IMG/VR virus record: IMGVR_UViG_3300032224_000517
Location: 1 to 28,114 of that record
DNA length: 28,114 bases
Strand: one strand, 5' to 3'
DNA from: a virus
A model generated the notes under the pieces. The model saw nothing but the letters and a program-made list of their open reading frames with translations. It did not search any database and was not told the origin of the DNA. A program made the translations under genes and the position numbers. Position 1 is the stretch's first letter; every line of letters begins with the position of its first letter. Positions 4,458 through 27,895 of the stretch are shown here, one piece after another.

Positions 4458-7400
4458 TTAATTACCTGCAGGTAAAGCAATTGCACGGAAATCTCGCACC
4501 TTAGGAACATCTGTTGTTGATGTGCCAGTCAATACAATCTTAATTGCAAATGTTCTAAAATTACTAAATGAAGTAGAACCTGAAGTGTAACTTACAGAAT
4601 TGTTTGCTGTGCCACTAACGCCTGGAGCATATGAGATTTCACGATAGTCATTATAGTTAGCCGACACAAAATTGGTATTATTCAATTGTGTCATTAATTG
4701 ATAGTTTTTATCTTCAAATGCACCAGGATCAGAGATAGACAATAGCTTATAGTAAACACGAATGTTTGAACCTGATGGTTTGTATGCGGTTAAATAAACA
4801 CGCAAATCACCTGAATCAAATCCATCTGCTAAATTAACCTTGCGAGTAATGTAACGAACATTGGAATTACCACCAGATTTCTTATCTTCACCGTTGTATG
4901 TAATTGTTGCACCGGTACCTGGTGTTGTATTAGCATCAACCAATGTAATTGTTGGTGATGTTTCGTAACCAGAACCAGGATTTGTTAGGTAGATAGATGT
5001 TACCACATTGTTAGTAAGTATTGCAGCCGCAGTTGCACCTGAACCGCCACCACCTGTAATTGTTACAACGGCATTGGCATTAGTTGAGTAAGCTGTTCCA
5101 CCACTTGACAATACGATTCCAGAATTACTTAATGGCAAATCATTAATGATGTTTTCAACCGCAATCATGCTTATGCGTGAAGTATCAATAAATGGTGCAA
5201 TATCAGGATTGGTGGTTGCCATTGTAGCTTTAACTGTTAATGTTGTATTAGCAGTTGTTGTTAATACACGGCGTCCATAACCATCGGTCATTGGATAGTC
5301 ATTTAGTGGAGTAAATGGCAGAAAGCCTGTTTTACCACCAGTTGTAGCTTTCTCAGAATTAAATTGATATGTAATTGAAGTATTTTCAACAGATATGCCG
5401 TTTGCAATTAAGTGCATTAAGTCATATGCTGTATTAGCAGATGGATAATTAACATTAAATTGTGTTTGAGTTGTACCGGTATCAAATGTATATCTAAACA
5501 GTCGGAACATTAAATCAGAGTTTTGCTCAGCAGTCCATGTAGAACCGTTCTGTGATAAGAACAAGGAACCTTGATATGGTTGCTCTGAAATCTGTCTTGC
5601 TGATACTGTATCCAATTTGCCAATTTCAGCCGCATATGTTTCATATTTGTTGGAGTTAGACAACAATACAAAACAATGTTCGCCAGGTTGTAGGAATAAT
5701 GGAGAATCAAATACAAATTCTGTGTATTTGGTTGCATCATCCAAATCAGGAGATGTAGTTGTTTTAACTTTATCTGGTGTCAATGTAACTGTTGAATATG
5801 GATAAACCAAAGATGTTGATGGGTATCCATTTACAACAGAACGAACTTGTAGTGTAACAGGTACAGTTGTATCTTTTGATTTAAAGCAGAAACGAGCCTT
5901 AGACAAGAAAATACCTTGTGAATAATTTGATGGTGACACCAAAAATGTTTGTGCTAATGGGTCATACCAACCAATAACCCGTGATGTAACAGAAGTTGTT
6001 GTTACAACTCTATTATCTTGAACAGCCGCTCGTTGAATTGTTGGAACAGTAGCAGAAATAATTGTATTTTCTGTTTTTTGTAATAATCCTTGTGCAAAGA
6101 ATGTGGCATCTCCGTTTGTAGAAGATGCACCAATATCGCCACTTGAAGTATCAATTAATCTAAAGTTTTTCTCACCAATACGAAATACTCCATTTGGAAT
6201 ATTAAACACACCAGCAACATCACCTGCAGCTGTTGTTGTTAAATTGCCAATTGAGTAAACAGAATTGGATGTTGGTGTAGTTGTCCATGATCCAACAATT
6301 GCTAATGTTCTTGTTCCTGCGGTGTAAGAAGAAACTGTGGCTGATTGACCAGCACCGGTTCCTGATACAATGTAAACTGTTGAACCAGCGTAGTCACCGA
6401 TATTGTTTGCACTTGTAGCATCCACAGACAATACAATTGTATTAGATGTAGCAGAAGTTACAAATCCAGAGTAATGGTCATATCCATTAATTTTAATTGA
6501 TGTGCCACTAGATTGGCCAACCAAATTCATAGTTGCGCCATTCAACAATGTTGATGGACTCAAATTAACTACAAACGCTTCTTTATTTGATGTGCGAACA
6601 ATGTAAGCTGTTGCGTTTACTGTGCTTGTTGCCGTGTTGGTAACATTAACAGCTTCTGGATTACCAGACTGTGTAATATAACCTAAATTGTTAGAACTTA
6701 ATGTAAATTTATTTGCACGAGCAACATATTTGTTCACATTAATATTGTCAAAAAATCCATAAAGTTCGGTACTTGGTTTAAAATCAGAGCAAGTAAACAA
6801 TATACCACGCTCACGCATATAAGGAATAATTGAAACATCAATAACACGGTCACCTAACGATTGAGTGATTGTTGATGGTACAACTTTTGAAAATACTCCT
6901 GAACGAGTTTGAGCGTCTGTTGTTGTGGTAGTTGTTACTTGAATGATTGCTGGGCGACTAAGATAAGTATATGAAGAACTGTTTGAGCCTGTCCAATAAG
7001 TTTCCCAATTACCCCACTCATAACTATAAGCATCTTTTGTAATTAAAGCCCACGCATCTTTGTCACCTTCAAGGTTTACAAGAACATCTGGTTGTTTGTT
7101 AGTATCAATCCAAACATCTGATGGTGGGTCTAATTGAATTTTACCAATGTAGTTTACAATATTAAATGGGTTAATATTATATACTTTTGAAGATTTGTTT
7201 TGGTCAACAAAAACAGTATGTGTTGCTGTAGGCAATAAAATTGGACCAGCCTTCAAATAATTAGATGAATTGGCTGAATCAAATGTTAATAGATGTGATG
7301 TAATATTAAATGTTGGTCTAACTTCTTTTTTCTTAGGATCAACAGCAATAGAATAATCAGAATTGGTTACATCAGCAACAGAGGTGCCATCAAATGAATC

Positions 7401-10388
7401 CACAACAATACCATTCTTAAATCGTGGTAAATTTGTAGAATCCAAAATGGTCAAATCTTGTTTATTCAATGCACTTTGTTCAAGCAAAGAAAGTGAGGTA
7501 TAATATTCTAAATTACCAATTCGTTTGTCTAATGTACCAATATCACGCATCGTATAACGTTTGTTATCAACATATTGAACTTCAATGTCGGATGTATTGG
7601 CAACATAAGCAGGCTCACGAAGAATATACAATGTCATCGCACCATCTTTGTCATTGGGCATAACTGGTGTCAAAGATGGATTGCCTTGCAGAACTTCAAA
7701 TGTGCGGTCTTTGTTTAATATTACCTTGTCCGTTCTTGGTAGATAATATTGATAATCTAAAACTATGTCGGAACCGTTCTCAGGAATCTTAGGACCAGTC
7801 GTGGTTGAATCAACATCAAAGCTGACGGTGTTTGCTGTCGCTGCTGATGTGGGTGTTGTCCTAACAGGCCTATAATCAAGGCAATCTCTTAATTGGTAAA
7901 CTTGCCCCGTTGCCTTAGAGGTGTAGGCAGGAATACTTCCGTAATTATACCCAACATACGAATCTACGGTAAAAAATCCTGCACCAGATGAGCTAAAACG
8001 ATTAAACTTAACAACTAACGGACCAGTAGGTGCAGCTGAACCAGCTTTCAATCTAATGGATGAATGGTCATAGAGTGAATCTCTTTGGCCATTATCTAAA
8101 GTGTAACGTGATGTAACATCTGTTGCAGTTGTTGAGTTAGCAACAGTAATTAAAGTGTTGTTAAAATCTAAAACAGAAACCAATTCAATAACATCAGGAA
8201 CAAATAATGATTGAGCTGTTCCTGGAGTTTTGTAAACTGTGTTGGCCATAATGTGAACTTGACCATTTGCAGTATAGAGAATTACTCCATTGTTTGCAAA
8301 AATACTTGTACCACCAGTTGTTTGCACAGTAGCATTGGCAGCAACATATGTTTTACCTTTTGAACCAGGATTACTTGCATCAATAGTTGCAGTAATATTT
8401 GCAACCATATTACCGCCAGAAGTAACAGTAATCTTACGAGTTCCTGTATCTACGGTATATAAGTTGGAAGGAATAATTTGACCAATAGTATATGGTGATG
8501 TGCCTGAAGTCGTTACAACAATCTGATAGTTTTCAGCTTTTGCAGAAGAACTTGTGGCAGCAGAAATTGTTTCACCACTACCAACAGTTAGTGCTGGAGA
8601 ATCTGATGATGAGAATGACTGAGATGCATACAGGCGTTTATAAGAGTATGAAAAATCAGCGATTGTGTTTTGTGCAACATAATTTTGACCAAGATTAAAC
8701 AATAATGGTTCAAGGTTGCTATCTGAAATAAATGTGTCGTTATATGTTGAAGCTAAATCTTTTGATGAAATATCAATGTCAGCTGCGGCAAGACGAGTTG
8801 TACCACTAACTACCGATAATGACTTAACATCATTAAATTCAAAATCAATAGACCAATTGGATAATGCGTTTGGCGTGGTAATGAAAGGTTCAGAAAGTTG
8901 AATTGTTTGAGTTGCACCATTATAGTTTGTAATTGATTTTGGTGTTTCACCAGCACCAGGACCAGTTAAAATTCTAAACTTAGAACCAACATAAGCAGTA
9001 TTAGCAGTAGAATATAATTGTGAACCAGTTATACTATTTGCAATCTGAACATAACCTGTATTTGTTCCTAAAACAACAACATTACCACCTGTAATAGAAC
9101 CAACATTCACATCAAACAAGTATGTGCGATAGGTGTATGTTGAAGAATTTTGTGTATTTGCTGCGGATTCAAATGCAATAGATTTAACACGAGCTGTACC
9201 AATTTTAGTATTAGTAATGGTACCAGCGGTTGTTACATTGATTGTGCTATTTGATACACAATGTAAATCTATTGTTTGTAAACTGTTAATTGGTAAAGAA
9301 CCAAAATGTGTATTTGAATACACATAGTAACCGTAGTCAGCAGTTAATCTTTTATTATTTACTGAATCGGTTGTGCGTGGCTTATCATATGTGATTGTTG
9401 TTGGTGCAATCGTTTCAAATTCGTAACCATAAACATATGCTTTGCCTGGCGATATAATGACATTAGCTTTTGCGGTATTAGCTGCACTTGTTTCTAGTGC
9501 TATCTTAAATGGTCGAACAGTATAGTTACCAGATTCATCATATGTTCTGCGTGCTAAAGTATCTTCAAGCACAGCATATTGTGGATATATTAGTGCGTAA
9601 GTTAAAGTTCCATTTTCAACTCTGGCCAACTCAATAAATTGTGTGTCGTCAGTAGAAACTAATGAACGACTTGTCAATACTAAATCAATTTTATATCTGT
9701 CAGCACCAGGAGCTTGAAAGTTTGAAGCGTCTTGTGCAGGATCCAATAATGAAGTATCTTGTGTATAAACAACAATGGATTCACCAACTTCAAAACCAAT
9801 TCTTGCGCTAGATGATGTGCTATACTTTGAAAGAGCAATAGTTTGTTTTGAATTCTTAATGAAGAATCCATCATAATAAAATACACCTTCATTAACAGAG
9901 AATAGTTGTCCAGTTCCTACACCAGATGTGGAAACATTGGCAAAAATAGGAGCATCTTCAACTGTGCGGATAATATCACCAGGAACAAATGCTGTACCAG
10001 AAACTTGTTTAACAAAAACTGTTTTTGGATCACCTGTACCGGCATCAGCGTCATAGACAACAACAACTTCACCACGCTTAAGGCCTGTAGCGTCAGTAAT
10101 TGTTTTGCCATCAAATTGAGAAACTTGAACTGTAACGCCTGAATAATCAGTATCAACTTTAAGATATGTTGAATCATGGATAAACAACTCACCACCAGTT
10201 ACTAAAGAACCATTCTTGAATACATGGTCACCAAAACGACCAATTTGGCTCTGTAATAGTGTTTGTGATTGTGTTAATTCACGAGCTTGAACTGCATATC
10301 CTGGCTTAAACAATAAACGAAGAAACTTTTTTGCTTCGTCAAAATCGTCATAATACGGATTGACATTAAAGTTGGTATCTAATGACAT
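4458..10388 (-). CDS. Giant DUF4815-type baseplate or tail-fibre structural protein (1976 aa)
   Basis: The N-terminus (VNPYYDDFDEAKKFLRLLF, then PGYAVQARELTQSQTLLQSQ, then GRFGDHVFKNGS) is the hallmark I associate with the DUF4815 family, found in large structural proteins of T4-like aquatic phages. The middle is strand-rich and low in Cys. At about residues 1476-1596 a domain runs from WYDPLAQTFLVS through a jelly-roll-like block (SKARFCFKSKD, VTLQVRSVVNGYPS) to GEHCFVLLSN. About residues 1755-1825 carry two GSGY-type modules also seen in gp6, gp8 and the 835-aa protein. It ends VRDFRAIALPAGN. AAGGAAA lies just upstream of the ATG and overlaps the gp8 stop. No gp9, gp10, gp11 or gp12 homologue is seen nearby, so this protein may take over their role as a peripheral baseplate or fibre scaffold; that is inference. 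Confidence 0.85.
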   Translation of the reverse strand: MSLDTNFNVNPYYDDFDEAKKFLRLLFKPGYAVQARELTQSQTLLQSQIGRFGDHVFKNGSLVTGGELFIHDSTYLKVDTDYSGVTVQVSQFDGKTITDATGLKRGEVVVVYDADAGTGDPKTVFVKQVSGTAFVPGDIIRTVEDAPIFANVSTSGVGTGQLFSVNEGVFYYDGFFIKNSKQTIALSKYSTSSSARIGFEVGESIVVYTQDTSLLDPAQDASNFQAPGADRYKIDLVLTSRSLVSTDDTQFIELARVENGTLTYALIYPQYAVLEDTLARRTYDESGNYTVRPFKIALETSAANTAKANVIISPGKAYVYGYEFETIAPTTITYDKPRTTDSVNNKRLTADYGYYVYSNTHFGSLPINSLQTIDLHCVSNSTINVTTAGTITNTKIGTARVKSIAFESAANTQNSSTYTYRTYLFDVNVGSITGGNVVVLGTNTGYVQIANSITGSQLYSTANTAYVGSKFRILTGPGAGETPKSITNYNGATQTIQLSEPFITTPNALSNWSIDFEFNDVKSLSVVSGTTRLAAADIDISSKDLASTYNDTFISDSNLEPLLFNLGQNYVAQNTIADFSYSYKRLYASQSFSSSDSPALTVGSGETISAATSSSAKAENYQIVVTTSGTSPYTIGQIIPSNLYTVDTGTRKITVTSGGNMVANITATIDASNPGSKGKTYVAANATVQTTGGTSIFANNGVILYTANGQVHIMANTVYKTPGTAQSLFVPDVIELVSVLDFNNTLITVANSTTATDVTSRYTLDNGQRDSLYDHSSIRLKAGSAAPTGPLVVKFNRFSSSGAGFFTVDSYVGYNYGSIPAYTSKATGQVYQLRDCLDYRPVRTTPTSAATANTVSFDVDSTTTGPKIPENGSDIVLDYQYYLPRTDKVILNKDRTFEVLQGNPSLTPVMPNDKDGAMTLYILREPAYVANTSDIEVQYVDNKRYTMRDIGTLDKRIGNLEYYTSLSLLEQSALNKQDLTILDSTNLPRFKNGIVVDSFDGTSVADVTNSDYSIAVDPKKKEVRPTFNITSHLLTFDSANSSNYLKAGPILLPTATHTVFVDQNKSSKVYNINPFNIVNYIGKIQLDPPSDVWIDTNKQPDVLVNLEGDKDAWALITKDAYSYEWGNWETYWTGSNSSSYTYLSRPAIIQVTTTTTTDAQTRSGVFSKVVPSTITQSLGDRVIDVSIIPYMRERGILFTCSDFKPSTELYGFFDNINVNKYVARANKFTLSSNNLGYITQSGNPEAVNVTNTATSTVNATAYIVRTSNKEAFVVNLSPSTLLNGATMNLVGQSSGTSIKINGYDHYSGFVTSATSNTIVLSVDATSANNIGDYAGSTVYIVSGTGAGQSATVSSYTAGTRTLAIVGSWTTTPTSNSVYSIGNLTTTAAGDVAGVFNIPNGVFRIGEKNFRLIDTSSGDIGASSTNGDATFFAQGLLQKTENTIISATVPTIQRAAVQDNRVVTTTSVTSRVIGWYDPLAQTFLVSPSNYSQGIFLSKARFCFKSKDTTVPVTLQVRSVVNGYPSTSLVYPYSTVTLTPDKVKTTTSPDLDDATKYTEFVFDSPLFLQPGEHCFVLLSNSNKYETYAAEIGKLDTVSARQISEQPYQGSLFLSQNGSTWTAEQNSDLMFRLFRYTFDTGTTQTQFNVNYPSANTAYDLMHLIANGISVENTSITYQFNSEKATTGGKTGFLPFTPLNDYPMTDGYGRRVLTTTANTTLTVKATMATTNPDIAPFIDTSRISMIAVENIINDLPLSNSGIVLSSGGTAYSTNANAVVTITGGGGSGATAAAILTNNVVTSIYLTNPGSGYETSPTITLVDANTTPGTGATITYNGEDKKSGGNSNVRYITRKVNLADGFDSGDLRVYLTAYKPSGSNIRVYYKLLSISDPGAFEDKNYQLMTQLNNTNFVSANYNDYREISYAPGVSGTANNSVSYTSGSTSFSNFRTFAIKIVLTGTSTTDVPKVRDFRAIALPAGN

Positions 10389-23044: not shown

Positions 23045-23052
23045 TATTTATA
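23045..23052 (-). promoter_or_regulatory. T4 late promoter TATAAATA for the leftward block
   Basis: A perfect match to the T4 late consensus lies on the minus strand in the 34-bp gap between divergent gp48 and gp4. It ends 27 nt before the gp48 ATG, allowing a leader of about 20 nt with a weak GGGAAT ribosome site. Its last plus-strand base is also the first base of the gp4 ATG. Confidence 0.7.
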
Positions 23053-23495
23053 TGACATTTGGCAACAATTACAAAGGATGGTTCAAACCTAAGAACCCTG
23101 GCAAATATAAAGGCGACCCGTCCAATATCGTTTATAGGTCGACTTGGGAGGTGCGTGTAATGAAATGGCTTGACGAACATCCGCAAGTCATTTGGTGGGG
23201 CTCGGAAGAACTTCCAATACCATACATTTCACCTGTGGACAAGAAAAAACACAAATACTTTCCTGACTTTATTGCCAAGATGAAATTAAAAGATGGGAAG
23301 GTAATGACTTATATTATTGAAGTTAAACCACTTGCCCAAACAAAGATGCCCACGCAAAAGAAAAAGACCCGTAAGTATCTTCAGGAAATGGCTACTTATG
23401 CTGTAAACCAAGAGAAGTGGAGAGCTGCTGATATCTTCTGTCAGGAACATGGATGGAAATTTCTAGTGGTTACTGAGAAGGAATTAGGTATCTAA
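23052..23495 (+). CDS. 4: Head completion nuclease gp4 (147 aa)
   Basis: Length equals T4 gp4 (150 aa). PKNPGKYKGDPSNIVYRSTW at the start and IWWGSEELPIPY are family landmarks. Residues of a PD-(D/E)XK type nuclease are present: Glu33 in the first helix, Asp72 in YFPDFI, and Glu90-Val-Lys92 in YIIEVKP, an arrangement like TnsA. T4 gp4 is needed to finish filled heads before tail joining and has been reported to have nuclease activity. The gene opens the rightward block. No Shine-Dalgarno is seen within 20 nt of the ATG, and I see no plus-strand late octamer before it. Confidence 0.9.
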   Translation: MTFGNNYKGWFKPKNPGKYKGDPSNIVYRSTWEVRVMKWLDEHPQVIWWGSEELPIPYISPVDKKKHKYFPDFIAKMKLKDGKVMTYIIEVKPLAQTKMPTQKKKTRKYLQEMATYAVNQEKWRAADIFCQEHGWKFLVVTEKELGI

Positions 23496-23571: not shown

Positions 23572-24150
23572 ATGGCTTACTTAATCCAGCGAATCAAGGA
23601 AGAACTAGACAATACAGGTTTTGAACCTAGAACTAGTGAAGCAAGAGATTGGCTAAAGGCTAAGGTTAAGAGTTTATCTCCCAGCCGCACGGCATTGATG
23701 AAAGACCGTGATAACTTAAAAGATAAGTCCATGATAGGTCGGATGTATTTTTACTTCTATGACCCTAAGTTGAAAGATATGTTGCCATATTACGATAGGT
23801 TCCCATTGGTTATACCAATTGAACGATACCAAGACGGTTTTTTAGGACTGAATCTACATTATATCAGTCCAAAGCAACGTGTCATTCTTTTAGACAAACT
23901 GAGTCATTTTTTGAATAATCATAAGTATGATGAGACCACAAGGCTTCGTCTATCTTATGACCATTTAAGAAACGCCAGCACAATTTACGAAGGTCTTCCT
24001 TGTATTAAGAAGTACCTTTACAAACAAGTCAAAAGCAGATTCTTAGAGATTACTGCTGATGAGTGGGATATTGCCGCCTTAATCCCATATGAGTATTTTG
24101 ACGGCGCAACAAAAAACAAAGTATGGACAGATTCTAGGAAAAAATTCTAA
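23572..24150 (+). CDS. Conserved unknown phage protein with LPYYDRFPLV motif (192 aa)
   Basis: Function not recognised. The N-terminal third is basic and helical (WLKAKVKSLSPSRTALMKD). The middle has MIGRMYFYFYDPKLKDMLPY, then YDRFPLVIPI and GFLGLNLHYISPKQRVILL. I recall this Leu-Pro-Tyr-Tyr-Asp with Gly-Leu-Asn-Leu-His-Tyr pattern from many T4-like and other large phages, always as an uncharacterised protein near head or tail genes. In T4, gene 2 (DNA end protector) neighbours gene 4, so a gp2-type role can be considered, but I cannot show similarity. Its stop overlaps the gp54 start as TAATG. Only a late octamer, not a Shine-Dalgarno, precedes it. Confidence 0.75.
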   Translation: MAYLIQRIKEELDNTGFEPRTSEARDWLKAKVKSLSPSRTALMKDRDNLKDKSMIGRMYFYFYDPKLKDMLPYYDRFPLVIPIERYQDGFLGLNLHYISPKQRVILLDKLSHFLNNHKYDETTRLRLSYDHLRNASTIYEGLPCIKKYLYKQVKSRFLEITADEWDIAALIPYEYFDGATKNKVWTDSRKKF

Positions 24151-24932
24151 TGTCATTTGCACCAAATTTATTCTTGTCAAATATGCGAGCAAAAGATGGC
24201 CCAGCAAAGCCATCAAGATTTGAGGTAATATTACCTATTCCTCCGTATATTAACAATTTTGTTAGCCAATCTATTTTTGAAAAATTAGTCAATTTGCCAA
24301 ATACAATTGTTTCTAGTTTAACTGATATCTTTGCTACTCAACCACAAGACGAACAATCAAAAACTTCAAATGCTTCTTTGTCCCGTTATTTGGCATTACA
24401 ATGTGAAACTGCTGAATTGCCTGGCAAAACATTGATGACACAAGATGCCAAAGTTTACGGACCAACATTTAAAGTTCCTTACTTAACACAATATAATGAT
24501 ATTACTTTAGGATTTCTATCAACAAATGATTTTTATGAAAGAAAATTGTTTGACCGCTGGTTGGAAGCAATTAATCCAAGCGATACAAATAACCTAAGAT
24601 TTTCCAAAGGAGAATCTACAAGATATATGACAAATATTAAAATTATTCAATATGATGATTTCATTAAACAAATCTATGCTGTTGAATTGATTGATGCTTT
24701 TCCTATTGGAGTATCAGCTCAACCACTAAGTTGGTCAGAGGATAATTTTCATCGTGTATCTGTTCAATTTTCATATCAAAAATATCGTGTGATTTATGAT
24801 GGCAATTATGATTTAGCTCAAGCTGCTGCAACAATTCTTGGACTAAAAACTGTAAACTTTACAAACAATACTGGAAATTCCATTATGAGTGGAATTGGAC
24901 GAGCTACGAGTGTATTTGGAAAATTATTTTAA
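24150..24932 (+). CDS. 54: Baseplate tail-tube initiator gp54 (260 aa)
   Basis: The tube-fold features are QCETAELPG (84-92) followed by KVYGPTFKVPY, then DRWLEAINP (135-143) and DAFPIGVSAQPLSW (182-195), with a final strand VSVQFSYQKYRVIY. These are shared with gp19 tube proteins, but the extended N-terminus (RFEVILPIPPYINNF) and the neighbours argue for gp54, which is 320 residues in T4. gp54 is the first ring on the hub from which the tube grows. AGGA stands about 10 nt before the ATG, which overlaps the previous stop. gp26 follows 16 nt later. Confidence 0.8.
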   Translation: MSFAPNLFLSNMRAKDGPAKPSRFEVILPIPPYINNFVSQSIFEKLVNLPNTIVSSLTDIFATQPQDEQSKTSNASLSRYLALQCETAELPGKTLMTQDAKVYGPTFKVPYLTQYNDITLGFLSTNDFYERKLFDRWLEAINPSDTNNLRFSKGESTRYMTNIKIIQYDDFIKQIYAVELIDAFPIGVSAQPLSWSEDNFHRVSVQFSYQKYRVIYDGNYDLAQAAATILGLKTVNFTNNTGNSIMSGIGRATSVFGKLF

Positions 24933-24948
24933 TTTATGAGGATATAAT

Positions 24949-25698
24949 ATGTTACCTAAAATTGATGTGCCGGTTTATAGTGTAAAGTTGATATCAAATG
25001 ATAAAACTTTGCAATTTAGACCATTCACCGTGAAAGAAGAAAAATTGTTTTTAATGGCCAATGAGAGTGATGATTTAGACACCATTCTTGATACCATTAA
25101 ACAGGTTATTAATAATTGTGTTTTGGATGAATTTGATATCAATGAATTACCAATGTTTGATATTGAATATGTCTTTTTGAACATTCGTGCTAGGTCGATT
25201 GGAGAAACAATCAACTTAAAATACAAATGTAACAACTCGCTTCCAAATGCCGAAGGCGAAGAAGGCGAAGAAGGCGAAGAAAAGAAATGTAATAATATGG
25301 TGGAAATTGATTTAAATGTTTTGGATATTGAACCAGAAAAAGTCGATAGCCATAGTAACAAGATTGAAATTACCGAACATATGGGTATGGTAATGAAATA
25401 TCCAAGTTTCAAATCTTTGAAAGAGTTTGATATTGAAAATGAAGCGGATTCTATTGTTAGTATGACTGCTGGTTGTATTGATTACATTTATGATAAAGAC
25501 AATATTTACTATGCAAAAGAGAATACAAAAGAAGAATTAATTGAATTTTTGGAATCTATGCAATCCAAAGATTTAGAGAAAGTTAGATTATTTTTTGATA
25601 CTATGCCTAAAATGAAAAAAACAATTCATTTTAAGTGTAATAAATGTGAACACGAAGAAAATATTGAGTTGGAAGGAATTCAAAGTTTTTTCGGATAA
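24949..25698 (+). CDS. 26: Baseplate hub assembly protein gp26 (249 aa)
   Basis: The N-terminal phrase QFRPFTVKEEKLFLMANES and the later LPMFDIEYVFLNIRARSIGE are the landmarks of the T4 baseplate (gp26) family; T4 gp26 is 208 residues. Cys94 and Cys114 flank an acidic insert, and Cys230, Cys233 with His235 (CNKCEH) lie near the end, suggesting a zinc ribbon. GAGG lies 7 nt before the ATG. The last codons are AGT TTT TTC GGA TAA, containing a slippery heptamer, so a fraction of product is probably extended by 62 residues in the -1 frame. In T4 the protein acts in hub assembly; the frameshift would make it resemble tail assembly chaperones of other phages. Confidence 0.87.
   Translation: MLPKIDVPVYSVKLISNDKTLQFRPFTVKEEKLFLMANESDDLDTILDTIKQVINNCVLDEFDINELPMFDIEYVFLNIRARSIGETINLKYKCNNSLPNAEGEEGEEGEEKKCNNMVEIDLNVLDIEPEKVDSHSNKIEITEHMGMVMKYPSFKSLKEFDIENEADSIVSMTAGCIDYIYDKDNIYYAKENTKEELIEFLESMQSKDLEKVRLFFDTMPKMKKTIHFKCNKCEHEENIELEGIQSFFG
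25252..25278 (+). repeat. Three perfect 9-bp tandem repeats in gp26
   Basis: GAAGGCGAA occurs three times in a row and encodes Glu-Gly-Glu three times. It lies between Cys94 and Cys114 of gp26. Change in copy number would keep frame. Confidence 0.9.
25686..25692 (+). promoter_or_regulatory. -1 ribosomal frameshift slippery site T TTT TTC
   Basis: In the gp26 frame the bases read T TTT TTC followed by GGA and TAA, a canonical X XXY YYZ heptamer. Slipping back one base gives TTT TTT CGG and opens a frame that runs to 25880. I found no convincing downstream pseudoknot or strong hairpin by eye. Confidence 0.7.
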
Positions 25699-25880
25699 AT
25701 TTTGGCCATGAGAACCTAGGGAACTACTATCAAACTAACTTTGCTTTAATGCAACATCACAAGTATAGTTTGACAGAATTGGAAAATATGTTACCTTGGG
25801 AAAGAGATATCTATGTGAATATGCTAATGCGATATCTCGAAGAAGAAAATGAAAAAATTAAACAAATGCAAAGGCATTAG
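25686..25880 (+). CDS. C-terminal extension of gp26 made by -1 frameshift
   Basis: After the slip the frame encodes 62 residues: RINFGHENLGNYY, QTNFALMQHH, then KYSLTELENMLPWERDIYV and an acidic helix ending KQMQRH. The open frame upstream has no ATG, GTG or TTG in a usable position; the first ATG (25749) comes after 19 residues, in the middle of a well-structured stretch, and lacks a ribosome site. The fusion would be 310 aa. The Leu-Pro-Trp-Glu-Arg and following charged helix resemble second-frame domains of tail assembly chaperones (the T part of lambda G-GT; P2 E-E prime). The stop at 25878-25880 is 2 nt before the next ATG. An alternative is an independent small gene starting at 25749. 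Confidence 0.68.
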   Translation, partial: FFRINFGHENLGNYYQTNFALMQHHKYSLTELENMLPWERDIYVNMLMRYLEEENEKIKQMQRH

Positions 25881-25882
25881 AA

Positions 25883-27895
25883 ATGAGCAGATTAGCTGAA
25901 ATCTTAACACAAGAGTATAAATCTAAAGGCATCCTTGGTGGTGCAGCTTCCGCTATTGGTAAACGAACTAGAGAAAAGTTAGACATCCGAAATGCTTTAT
26001 TTGGAGGGTCTGGTGTTGGCTCAATAGTTGGAAGAAAAGTGTTTGGTAAAGGATATTCAGCTACAGGTAAAGATAGTAAGATATCAACTGATACTAATGC
26101 ACTATCTGGTGGATCATCTTCTGCATTACAAGAATTAAATATGAACAGCCAGATTAGTGCAAAGAATTCTACTGCTTTGCCTAAAATTGCATTTGATATG
26201 AATATTATGAAACAAAACATCGCTAAGTTGGTTAAAGCACAAGGTGTAACACCATCTAAACGAGCTGATATGTATTTTCAAAAACAAAAAGAAAGAAATT
26301 CAACATATAAAAATCTTTTTGGTACAAAATCAAGTAAAGTAGAAAAAGTTGGAGCTTCAGAGGGTTCAGAAAGTATTATTGGTGGTATTATTGGTGGCCT
26401 TGTTTCTAAATTAGGCACAGGACTTTTACCTCTTATTGGGACTGCGGTTGCCGTTGGTGTTGCTTTAAATAATTTAAGAAATGCGTTTAATGGATTTTTA
26501 GATTGGTTTGCAGGAACTTGGATTGGTAAAAAATTAGGTATTCAACCATCAGGTGCAAATCCTGGTAGTGGTGGTGGCGGTGATCCAGGAAGTCCTGGCT
26601 CTGGACAACCAGGCCAAAAAGGATTTATGGAACGAGCAGGAGATGTCGCAACAAATTCTGTTGAAGCTTTTGGTGAATATAAAGCATTGCGATTTGGCCA
26701 AAAACTTGGTGAAAAAGTTCCTAAATTTGAAATGCGTGGTGCAGGAACTCTTGCAGAAAAAGGTGGAGGTTTTGTTAAAGGTGGAGCTTCTCAAGTTGGA
26801 GGAGGTGGAAAATTAGCCGATGCTTTAGAGAAATTGAGAAGTTTTGCGGTTAAATCCACATCAAAAGGATGGGGACCAAAAATCACTCAAAAACTAACAC
26901 AAAAATTAGGTCGTTTAATTGCTTTTAAATGTGTGACTTTATTTGCTGGATTTGCAGCTGCTCCGTTCACAGCAGGATTTTCTGCTCTAATCAGTATTGT
27001 TAGTGCTTTGTGGTTGATGAAAGATATTTGGGACATTTACGAAGCAATTTTTGGCACAAATGGTATTGAAAAAGAATTGGAAGATGAAGATAAAGATACT
27101 GGTAAATCTAGTTCTCCAACAATGCAAAAAACATCTACTGATTCAGCACCAGGCGCTACGCCATCAGCTTCAAATGAAACAGGAAATAGTCCTAGTCCAG
27201 TTGGATCAGGACCATCCAATTTACAATTACCAAAAGGTAAATCTGTTAGTAGTAATGAAGCTATTGATTATCTTGTTAAGAAAGGAATGTCACCAGAGCA
27301 AGCTGCTGGTGTAGTTGGTAATTTATTACAAGAATCTTCATTAAATAGTGGCGCACAAAACAACGCTGAGGGCGCTTATGGTATCGCACAATGGAGAGGT
27401 TCAAGATTAACAGATTTGCAGAATTTTGCCGCTTCTCGTGGAAAAACAATTGATGATGTAAATACTCAATTAGATTTTATCATGCATGAATTAAATGGTA
27501 AAGAAAAGAAAGCTGGACAAATGTTATTTGCTTCTAAAACTGCTGAAGAGGCTGCATACAATTTTGGTAAATATTATGAAAGACCAAAAACTGTTGAACA
27601 AGCTAGGATGGATTGGGCAGCAAAAACATTAGCTGAATATAAACCGACCGGTAGTGGTTCAAGTAATGTCCAATTAGCTCAAGTGGGAGATGGAATGGGT
27701 TCTGGTGGTGCTGAAATGATGGCCGCATCAAACGCTGTCAATGATGCTAAAAATTCTCCTGCTAAATCACAACCAGTTCAAGTAGCACAAGACAATAGAC
27801 AAACAGTAGTCAATAATGGCGGTGGCGGTGGTAATTCTCAAATGACTGCTTATGACCAGTATTTTGGTAAATACTTAATAGACCGCACTACGTAA
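25883..27895 (+). CDS. Large hub or tape-measure candidate with C-terminal tail lysozyme (670 aa)
   Basis: Residues about 455-575 form a phage tail lysozyme domain: YLVKKGMSPEQAAGVVGNLL, then QESSLN with the probable catalytic Glu484, and GAYGIAQWRGSRL. The N-terminus (LTQEYKSKGILGGAASAIGK, then RNALFGGSGVGSI) is a conserved-looking leader. Hydrophobic stretches lie at about 165-196 and 342-390, with a Gly/Pro linker at 222-248. The enzyme would cut peptidoglycan locally during infection, the job of the lysozyme domain in T4 gp5. It follows a frameshifted gp26 unit, the place of a tape measure in many tail operons, and 670 residues could span a T4-size tail; this is inference. A hub plug is the other option. 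AAGG lies 10 nt upstream. Confidence 0.82.
   Translation: MSRLAEILTQEYKSKGILGGAASAIGKRTREKLDIRNALFGGSGVGSIVGRKVFGKGYSATGKDSKISTDTNALSGGSSSALQELNMNSQISAKNSTALPKIAFDMNIMKQNIAKLVKAQGVTPSKRADMYFQKQKERNSTYKNLFGTKSSKVEKVGASEGSESIIGGIIGGLVSKLGTGLLPLIGTAVAVGVALNNLRNAFNGFLDWFAGTWIGKKLGIQPSGANPGSGGGGDPGSPGSGQPGQKGFMERAGDVATNSVEAFGEYKALRFGQKLGEKVPKFEMRGAGTLAEKGGGFVKGGASQVGGGGKLADALEKLRSFAVKSTSKGWGPKITQKLTQKLGRLIAFKCVTLFAGFAAAPFTAGFSALISIVSALWLMKDIWDIYEAIFGTNGIEKELEDEDKDTGKSSSPTMQKTSTDSAPGATPSASNETGNSPSPVGSGPSNLQLPKGKSVSSNEAIDYLVKKGMSPEQAAGVVGNLLQESSLNSGAQNNAEGAYGIAQWRGSRLTDLQNFAASRGKTIDDVNTQLDFIMHELNGKEKKAGQMLFASKTAEEAAYNFGKYYERPKTVEQARMDWAAKTLAEYKPTGSGSSNVQLAQVGDGMGSGGAEMMAASNAVNDAKNSPAKSQPVQVAQDNRQTVVNNGGGGGNSQMTAYDQYFGKYLIDRTT

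What the first reader, a model, noticed from the sequence alone, without database searches (positions are those of the whole stretch)
25684..25880. Programmed -1 frameshift at the end of a T4-type gp26 gene
A perfect slippery heptamer T TTT TTC sits in the gp26 frame three codons before its stop. The -1 frame is open for 62 codons, has no start codon for its first 19 residues although these look coherent with the rest, and stops 2 nt before the next gene. This is the architecture of tail assembly chaperones (short form plus frameshifted long form, followed by the tape measure gene), placed on a hub assembly gene of a T4-like phage. If real, it links gp26 with the chaperone families of siphoviruses and P2-like phages.
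Basis: partly seen in the sequence, partly recalled or inferred. Interest (0 to 1): 0.82.

Follow-up and report, generated by a model that had tools for sequence, protein, structure and literature searches.

The report
Frameshifted tail assembly chaperone, T4-like phage
In this virus the ribosome is very probably made to slip back one letter near the end of gene 26 so that a few longer copies of the protein are made, the classic way tailed phages make the two forms of the helper that builds their tail; the signal is conserved across the wider T4 group, and the core idea has already been published for T4-like phages.

Summary
Observation confirmed to the base. Gene 26 (24949-25698) ends ...AGT TTT TTC GGA TAA. 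The -1 frame runs on for 62 codons and ends 2 nt before the next ATG. The -1 frame encodes the C-terminal part of T4 gp51. In 104 gp26 clusters (<80% identity), all have the extension in the -1 frame and none in +1. T TTT TTC sits at exactly -10 from the stop in 91 (11.7 expected from protein and codon usage), and TTTTTTN in 97. A Shine-Dalgarno-like hexamer lies 6-9 nt upstream in 91 of those 97. Separate initiation is unlikely in most clusters. A profile of T4-type gp51, whose gene fuses both parts in frame, aligns across the junction of 102/103 frameshift products. Predicted gp26 resembles solved tail assembly chaperones. T4 itself carries the short and long forms as two genes. This closes a gap left in 2010, when cyanophage gp51 was called truncated and Aeh1 was said to lack it. 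The central claim is not new: Vladimirov et al. 2022 identified T4-like tail assembly chaperone genes (paper not held; known here through citing papers). Extensions made here: statistics, upstream stimulator, and a heptamer-less T_TTC variant in Ackermannviridae. No translation data exist.

The parts
24949..25698 (+). gene 26 homologue, zero-frame short form (249 aa): T4_baseplate domain; predicted tail assembly chaperone, short form (TAC-N)
   Evidence: PF12322 E 5e-63, phrog_150 E 2e-67; AlphaFold2 pLDDT 89.5, residues 1-93 match tail assembly chaperones
25671..25676 (+). internal Shine-Dalgarno-like hexamer GGAAGG, 9 nt upstream of the slip site (predicted stimulator)
   Evidence: anti-SD pairing for windows starting about -31..-25 from the stop stronger than in synonymous shuffles, z -5.6 to -6.8; SD-like hexamer 6-9 nt before the heptamer in 91/97 clusters
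25686..25692 (+). slippery heptamer T TTT TTC, in the gp26 frame
   Evidence: TTTTTTC at the same place in 91/97 clusters and TTTTTTN in 97/97
25696..25698 (+). zero-frame stop TAA, one codon after the heptamer
   Evidence: spacing kept at -10 in 97/104 clusters
25692..25880 (+). -1 frame extension (62 codons + TAG): C-terminal part of T4 gp51; with gp26 gives the 310-aa long form (TAC-NC)
   Evidence: phrog_634 baseplate hub assembly catalyst E 3.8e-27; 587 phage records with a homologue; codon-position pattern of a translated -1 frame
25749..25751 (+). first ATG in the extension frame; unlikely start
   Evidence: ATG at this place has no SD: mean anti-SD energy +0.25 against -4.28 for gp26's own starts; conserved residues lie upstream of it
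24150..24932 (+). tail-tube-type protein immediately upstream
   Evidence: phrog_45 E 5e-34, phrog_3629 E 6e-27
25883..27895 (+). tape-measure-like protein with tail lysozyme domain immediately downstream
   Evidence: phrog_9570 tail length tape measure E 2e-28 (C-terminal part), PF18013 Phage_lysozyme2 E 2e-35

Best explanation
The locus is a frameshifted tail assembly chaperone gene. Most ribosomes read gene 26 to its stop and make the short form (249 aa). A minority, on reaching T TTT TTC with an SD-like GGAAGG pairing behind them, slip back one base (Phe tRNAs re-pair from TTT TTC to TTT TTT), bypass the stop and add the 62-residue gp51 domain, giving a 310-aa long form. By analogy with lambda gpG/gpGT, many short copies and few long copies would coat the tape measure protein encoded next door, and the extra domain would bring in tail tube or hub components. 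T4 has replaced the frameshift by two genes: gene 26 (short) and gene 51 (long, both parts in one frame). Shown here: conservation and codon-level selection on the slip site, the SD-like element, translation-type evolution of the -1 frame, homology of the fusion to gp51 across the junction, predicted chaperone fold. Inferred: slippage in vivo, its rate, the ratio of forms, and binding to the tape measure.
For: Frame: 104/104 clusters have the extension in -1, 0/104 in +1. Slip site: the preceding codon ends in T in 97/97 (60 expected), TTT in 97/97, TTC in 91/97 although TTC is 26% of Phe codons elsewhere in these genes. One relative (L137) keeps the heptamer at -31 although its stop lies further downstream. 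Stimulator: z -5.6 to -6.8; hexamer 6-9 nt upstream in 91/97. Translated -1 frame between stop and first ATG: third-base entropy 1.18 against 0.80 and 0.48. Long form: T4-type gp51 is T4_baseplate plus this extension in one frame; a gp51 HMM scores fusions at median 63.5 bits against 26.6 for short forms, and 102/103 have one hit spanning the junction. Aeh1 DFF|RLTLVND aligns with T4 gp51 DVF|KLLVNPD. Fold: the only PDB chains with Z >= 5 are 3FGX 8.1, 3KLU 7.6, 2OB9 7.5 and 5IR0 5.6, described as tail assembly chaperones in PMC9603447 and PMC12987554. T4 gp51 is required for assembly but absent from the virion (PMC3004832).
Against: No translation or mass-spectrometry data. No conserved downstream RNA structure, so stimulation rests on the SD-like site. 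16/104 clusters have a start codon near the stop that could allow coupled initiation. The fold match has moderate Z and covers residues 1-93 only; the gp51 model gave no match with Z >= 5. The downstream gene matches tape measure families only in its C-terminal part.
Confidence: 0.88

Rival explanations
1. The second frame is a separate small gene (short gp51), translated from its own or a coupled start, as annotated in many cyanophage and vibriophage records.
For: GenBank annotates separate gp51 ORFs. KVP40-like, phiM12, VAP7 and RL38J1 have an ATG overlapping the gp26 stop.
Against: In the window and most relatives no start lies near the stop (16/104 have one). The first ATG at +53 lacks an SD and would cut off conserved residues. 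KVP40-like phages keep the heptamer as well. The alignment to T4 gp51 runs through the junction.
Confidence: 0.06
2. Transcriptional slippage on the T run makes a mixed mRNA population instead of ribosomal slippage.
For: A run of T at the junction.
Against: The run is exactly six T in 94/97 clusters, short for RNA polymerase slippage (general knowledge). The codon phase is fixed, TTC is preferred over TTT, and an SD-like element at ribosomal spacing is conserved.
Confidence: 0.02
3. Chance heptamer plus an unrelated overlapping reading frame, or a sequencing error splitting one fused gene.
For: In-frame slippery heptamers are common in this AT-rich window.
Against: The same site and frame offset recur in 97-104 clusters from many environments and in named isolates.
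Confidence: 0.01

Closest known systems
T4-like tail assembly chaperone genes gp26/gp51 (Vladimirov, Gautam and Davidson 2022, Virology 566:9-15)
   Same: Very probably the same genes (the paper's gene numbers could not be read here). Short and long forms of a T4-like tail assembly chaperone, poly-T slippery sequences in T4-like TAC-N genes (as cited in PMC12846349), and two-gene solutions in some T4-like phages (as cited in PMC10274946).
   Different: The paper itself was not held, so its exact taxa and sites are unknown here. In T4 the forms come from two genes; here from one gene by frameshift.
Phage lambda gpG/gpGT
   Same: Short and long forms from one -1 frameshift near the 3' end; chaperone of the tape measure protein (PMC5009743).
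   Different: Different slippery heptamer (G GGA AAG, own knowledge), different size, and an extra C-terminal half in gp26; no lambda G family was hit by sequence.
Vandenendeviridae/Andersonviridae tail assembly chaperone frameshift (phage Adele, PMC12846349)
   Same: -1 frame extension between chaperone and tape measure genes, poly-T motif GTTTTT.
   Different: Different phage families; motif is GTTTTT rather than the full T TTT TTC heptamer. VAP7 (Ackermannviridae) shows a GTTTTT site.
E. coli dnaX -1 frameshift signal (own knowledge)
   Same: Heptamer plus upstream SD-like stimulator at about 10 nt.
   Different: dnaX also has a strong downstream hairpin; none is conserved here. The dnaX frameshift product is shorter, not longer.

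Membership tests
[quoted passage not shown]
Frameshifted tail assembly chaperones (lambda G/GT type) | Gene lies between a tail tube gene and the tape measure gene | tested here: met
   upstream tail-tube family (phrog_45, phrog_3629), downstream tape-measure-like gene (phrog_9570, C-terminal part only); similar order in other clades
Frameshifted tail assembly chaperones (lambda G/GT type) | Chaperone fold of the N-terminal domain | tested here: met
   VIA-align Z 8.1, 7.6, 7.5, 5.6 to 3FGX, 3KLU, 2OB9, 5IR0, all chaperones, no other chain with Z >= 5; Z values are moderate. Foldseek gave no hit with E <= 0.001
Frameshifted tail assembly chaperones (lambda G/GT type) | Frameshift occurs in vivo at a few per cent and both forms are needed | not testable with these tools
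   needs a reporter, mass spectrometry or genetics
Frameshifted tail assembly chaperones (lambda G/GT type) | Binds the tape measure protein; absent from the virion | not testable with these tools
   only T4 gp51 is reported absent from the final particle (PMC3004832)
T4 gp26/gp51 family (PF12322, phrog_150, phrog_634) | T4_baseplate domain above curated cut-off | tested here: met
   213 bits against cut-off 24.5
T4 gp26/gp51 family (PF12322, phrog_150, phrog_634) | gp51 C-terminal domain continuous with the T4_baseplate domain | tested here: met
   only through the -1 frameshift: gp51 HMM hit covers residues 18-294 of the 310-aa window fusion

The most novel reading that the evidence does not exclude
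Across the T4 superfamily the frameshift is the ancestral way to make both chaperone forms, helped by an upstream SD-like stimulator without a downstream structure. The T4 lineage replaced it once by gene duplication (26 and 51 as sister genes). Ackermannviridae keep the frameshift on a minimal T_TTC tetranucleotide that annotation and heptamer-based searches miss.
Probability: 0.45. Interest if true: 0.5.

Novelty: new member of a known kind. Interest (0 to 1): 0.4.

Why it matters
It shows that the 'truncated' gp51 of cyanophages and marine vibriophages, noted in 2010 (PMC3037559), is probably not truncated but made by frameshift, and that Aeh1, listed there as lacking gp51, has it. It gives a concrete, testable role (tape measure chaperone) for T4 gp26 and gp51, long described only as hub assembly proteins. 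It also points to a mis-annotated gene in hundreds of public phage genomes.

Tried and rejected
Downstream stimulatory RNA structure: modest folding bias just after the stop (mean z about -1) but no consensus structure in 47 sequences, so not claimed. Solved-structure search by sequence: nothing credible. Foldseek alone: no hit with E <= 0.001 in the PDB for gp26 or gp51; the chaperone match came from the second look by VIA-align, and the gp51 model gave nothing with Z >= 5. Literature for a published gp26 frameshift: the key paper (Vladimirov 2022) is not held and was read only through citing papers. Separate initiation, transcriptional slippage and chance were tested and rejected as above.

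Full report
What is in the sequence. Gene 26 (24949-25698) ends ATT CAA AGT TTT TTC GGA TAA. The heptamer T TTT TTC occupies 25686-25692 in the gp26 frame. A -1 slip resumes at CGG (25692) and reads 62 more codons to TAG (25878-25880), 2 nt before the ATG at 25883. In-frame slippery heptamers are common in this AT-rich window, so only comparison can decide. The window is a whole IMG/VR record of 28114 bases.

What the two frames encode. The zero frame is the T4_baseplate family (PF12322, 213 bits; phrog_150). The -1 frame is phrog_634, 'baseplate hub assembly catalyst', that is the C-terminal part of T4 gp51 (E 3.8e-27). tblastn finds gp26 homologues in 987 phage records and extension homologues in 587. 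Cyanophage records annotate the extension as a separate gp51 gene or not at all; none of those inspected carries a joined feature.

Conservation. In 162 loci first examined, 161 have the extension in the -1 frame; in the one exception (L151) the gp26 frame stops early. After adding more clades and clustering gp26 at 80% identity, 104/104 clusters have a -1 extension of at least 45 codons and 0/104 a +1 extension. TTTTTTN lies at exactly -10 from the stop in 97 of them, at -13 in phiM12 and at -7 in Milchi, and L137 keeps it at -31 although its stop lies further downstream; the rest are Ackermannviridae-type. Among the 97, the codon before the heptamer ends in T in all, TTT is invariant, and TTC is used in 91 although it makes up 26% of Phe codons in the rest of these genes. 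TTTTTTC is expected 11.7 +/- 3.2 times and observed 91 times. Clusters are related, so the figure is not a formal probability, but it shows selection on nucleotides rather than on Phe-Phe.

Stimulator. Pairing with the 16S anti-SD is stronger than in synonymous shuffles for 8-nt windows starting at about -31 to -25 from the stop (z -5.6 to -6.8). An SD-like hexamer lies 6-9 nt before the heptamer in 91/97 clusters; in the window it is GGAAGG at 25671-25676. No downstream structure is conserved.

Is the extension translated, and from where? Between the gp26 stop and the first ATG, base variability follows the -1 codon phase (entropy 0.80, 0.48, 1.18), and several residues there are nearly invariant. 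A start codon lies near the stop in only 16/104 clusters. The ATG at +53 has no SD (mean +0.25 kcal/mol; gp26's own starts -4.28; random sites -1.26). KVP40-like phages have an ATG overlapping the stop and also keep the heptamer, so coupled initiation may add to frameshifting there.

The in-frame equivalent in T4. T4 and its near relatives have two genes: gp26, with T4_baseplate only, and gp51, with T4_baseplate plus the extension in one frame. T4 gp26 and gp51 are paralogues (blastp E 2e-6; both in phrog_150). An HMM of T4-type gp51 scores the frameshift fusions at a median of 63.5 bits against 26.6 for the short forms, and in 102/103 one hit runs through the junction. In Aeh1, reported in 2010 as lacking gp51, the fusion DFF-RLTLVND aligns with T4 gp51 DVF-KLLVNPD. 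In Slopekvirus BL02 the two genes lie in tandem. A tree puts T4-type gp26 and gp51 together, apart from all 31 single-gene rows (support 96/93), as one duplication in the T4 lineage would give; branches are long and the root is unknown.

Fold. AlphaFold2 of window gp26 has pLDDT 89.5. Of 287 chains compared, the only entries with Z >= 5 are 3FGX (8.1), 3KLU (7.6), 2OB9 (7.5) and 5IR0 (5.6), over residues 1-93. All four are described as tail assembly chaperones in the literature. Z is moderate and Foldseek alone was not significant. The predicted structure matches gp26-type proteins of many large phages in BFVD. A T4-type gp51, folded with a mixed alignment, has pLDDT 92.3 and places the extension as a helical C-terminal part, with no PDB match of Z >= 5.

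Ackermannviridae. Ten loci (Kuttervirus, Limestonevirus, Taipeivirus, Campanilevirus, VAP7, and the related VPALA, TSW001, D503) have a -1 extension of 49-68 codons with a PW motif and no long +1 extension. They lack the heptamer; most have xxT TTC near the stop (ATT TTC, CTT TTC, GCT TTC), and VAP7 has GTT TTT. A tetranucleotide slip site is the likely explanation; this is inferred.

Mechanism, shown and inferred. Shown: conservation, codon-level selection, SD-like element, translation-type evolution of the -1 frame, homology of the fusion to gp51. Inferred: slippage in vivo, ratio of forms, and coating of the tape measure, by analogy with lambda gpG/gpGT (PMC5009743) and from T4 gp51 being required for assembly but absent from the particle (PMC3004832).

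Novelty. [quoted passage not shown] The paper is not held. Citing papers report that some T4-like phages carry a short gene and a long fusion gene instead of frameshifting (PMC10274946), and that poly-T slippery sequences are known in TAC-N genes of T4-like phages (PMC12846349). The central claim is therefore known, and this locus is a new member. What may be new is the upstream stimulator, the scale of the conservation, the explanation of 'truncated' and 'missing' gp51 in the 2010 survey, and the Ackermannviridae variant.

Noticed in passing
25252-25281: In-frame 9-nt tandem repeat GAAGGCGAA x3.3 (GEEGEEGEE) in the gp26 loop between two Cys motifs; loop length varies in relatives.
   Followed up: partly
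L170, L171, L173, L188, L294-L299 near the gp26 stop: Ackermannviridae and relatives keep the -1 extension without a canonical heptamer; most have T_TTC near the gp26 stop, VAP7 has GTT TTT.
   Followed up: partly
L289 2483-3429: Aeh1, listed in PMC3037559 as lacking gp51, encodes it in the -1 frame after gp26 with TTTTTTC at -10.
   Followed up: yes
L292 2501-3795: Slopekvirus BL02 carries long (gp51) and short (gp26) genes in tandem on the same strand, unlike the divergent pair of T4.
   Followed up: partly
24949-25698: gp26 has Cys motifs (KCNN, KKCNN, KCNKC) that resemble a zinc ribbon; the second pair is replaced in some marine relatives.
   Followed up: no
23052-23495: Head closure family protein (phrog_218) matches a TnsA-like endonuclease domain (PF08722, E 1e-22).
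   Followed up: no
4458-10388: 1976-aa ORF on the minus strand, the largest in the window; not examined.
   Followed up: no
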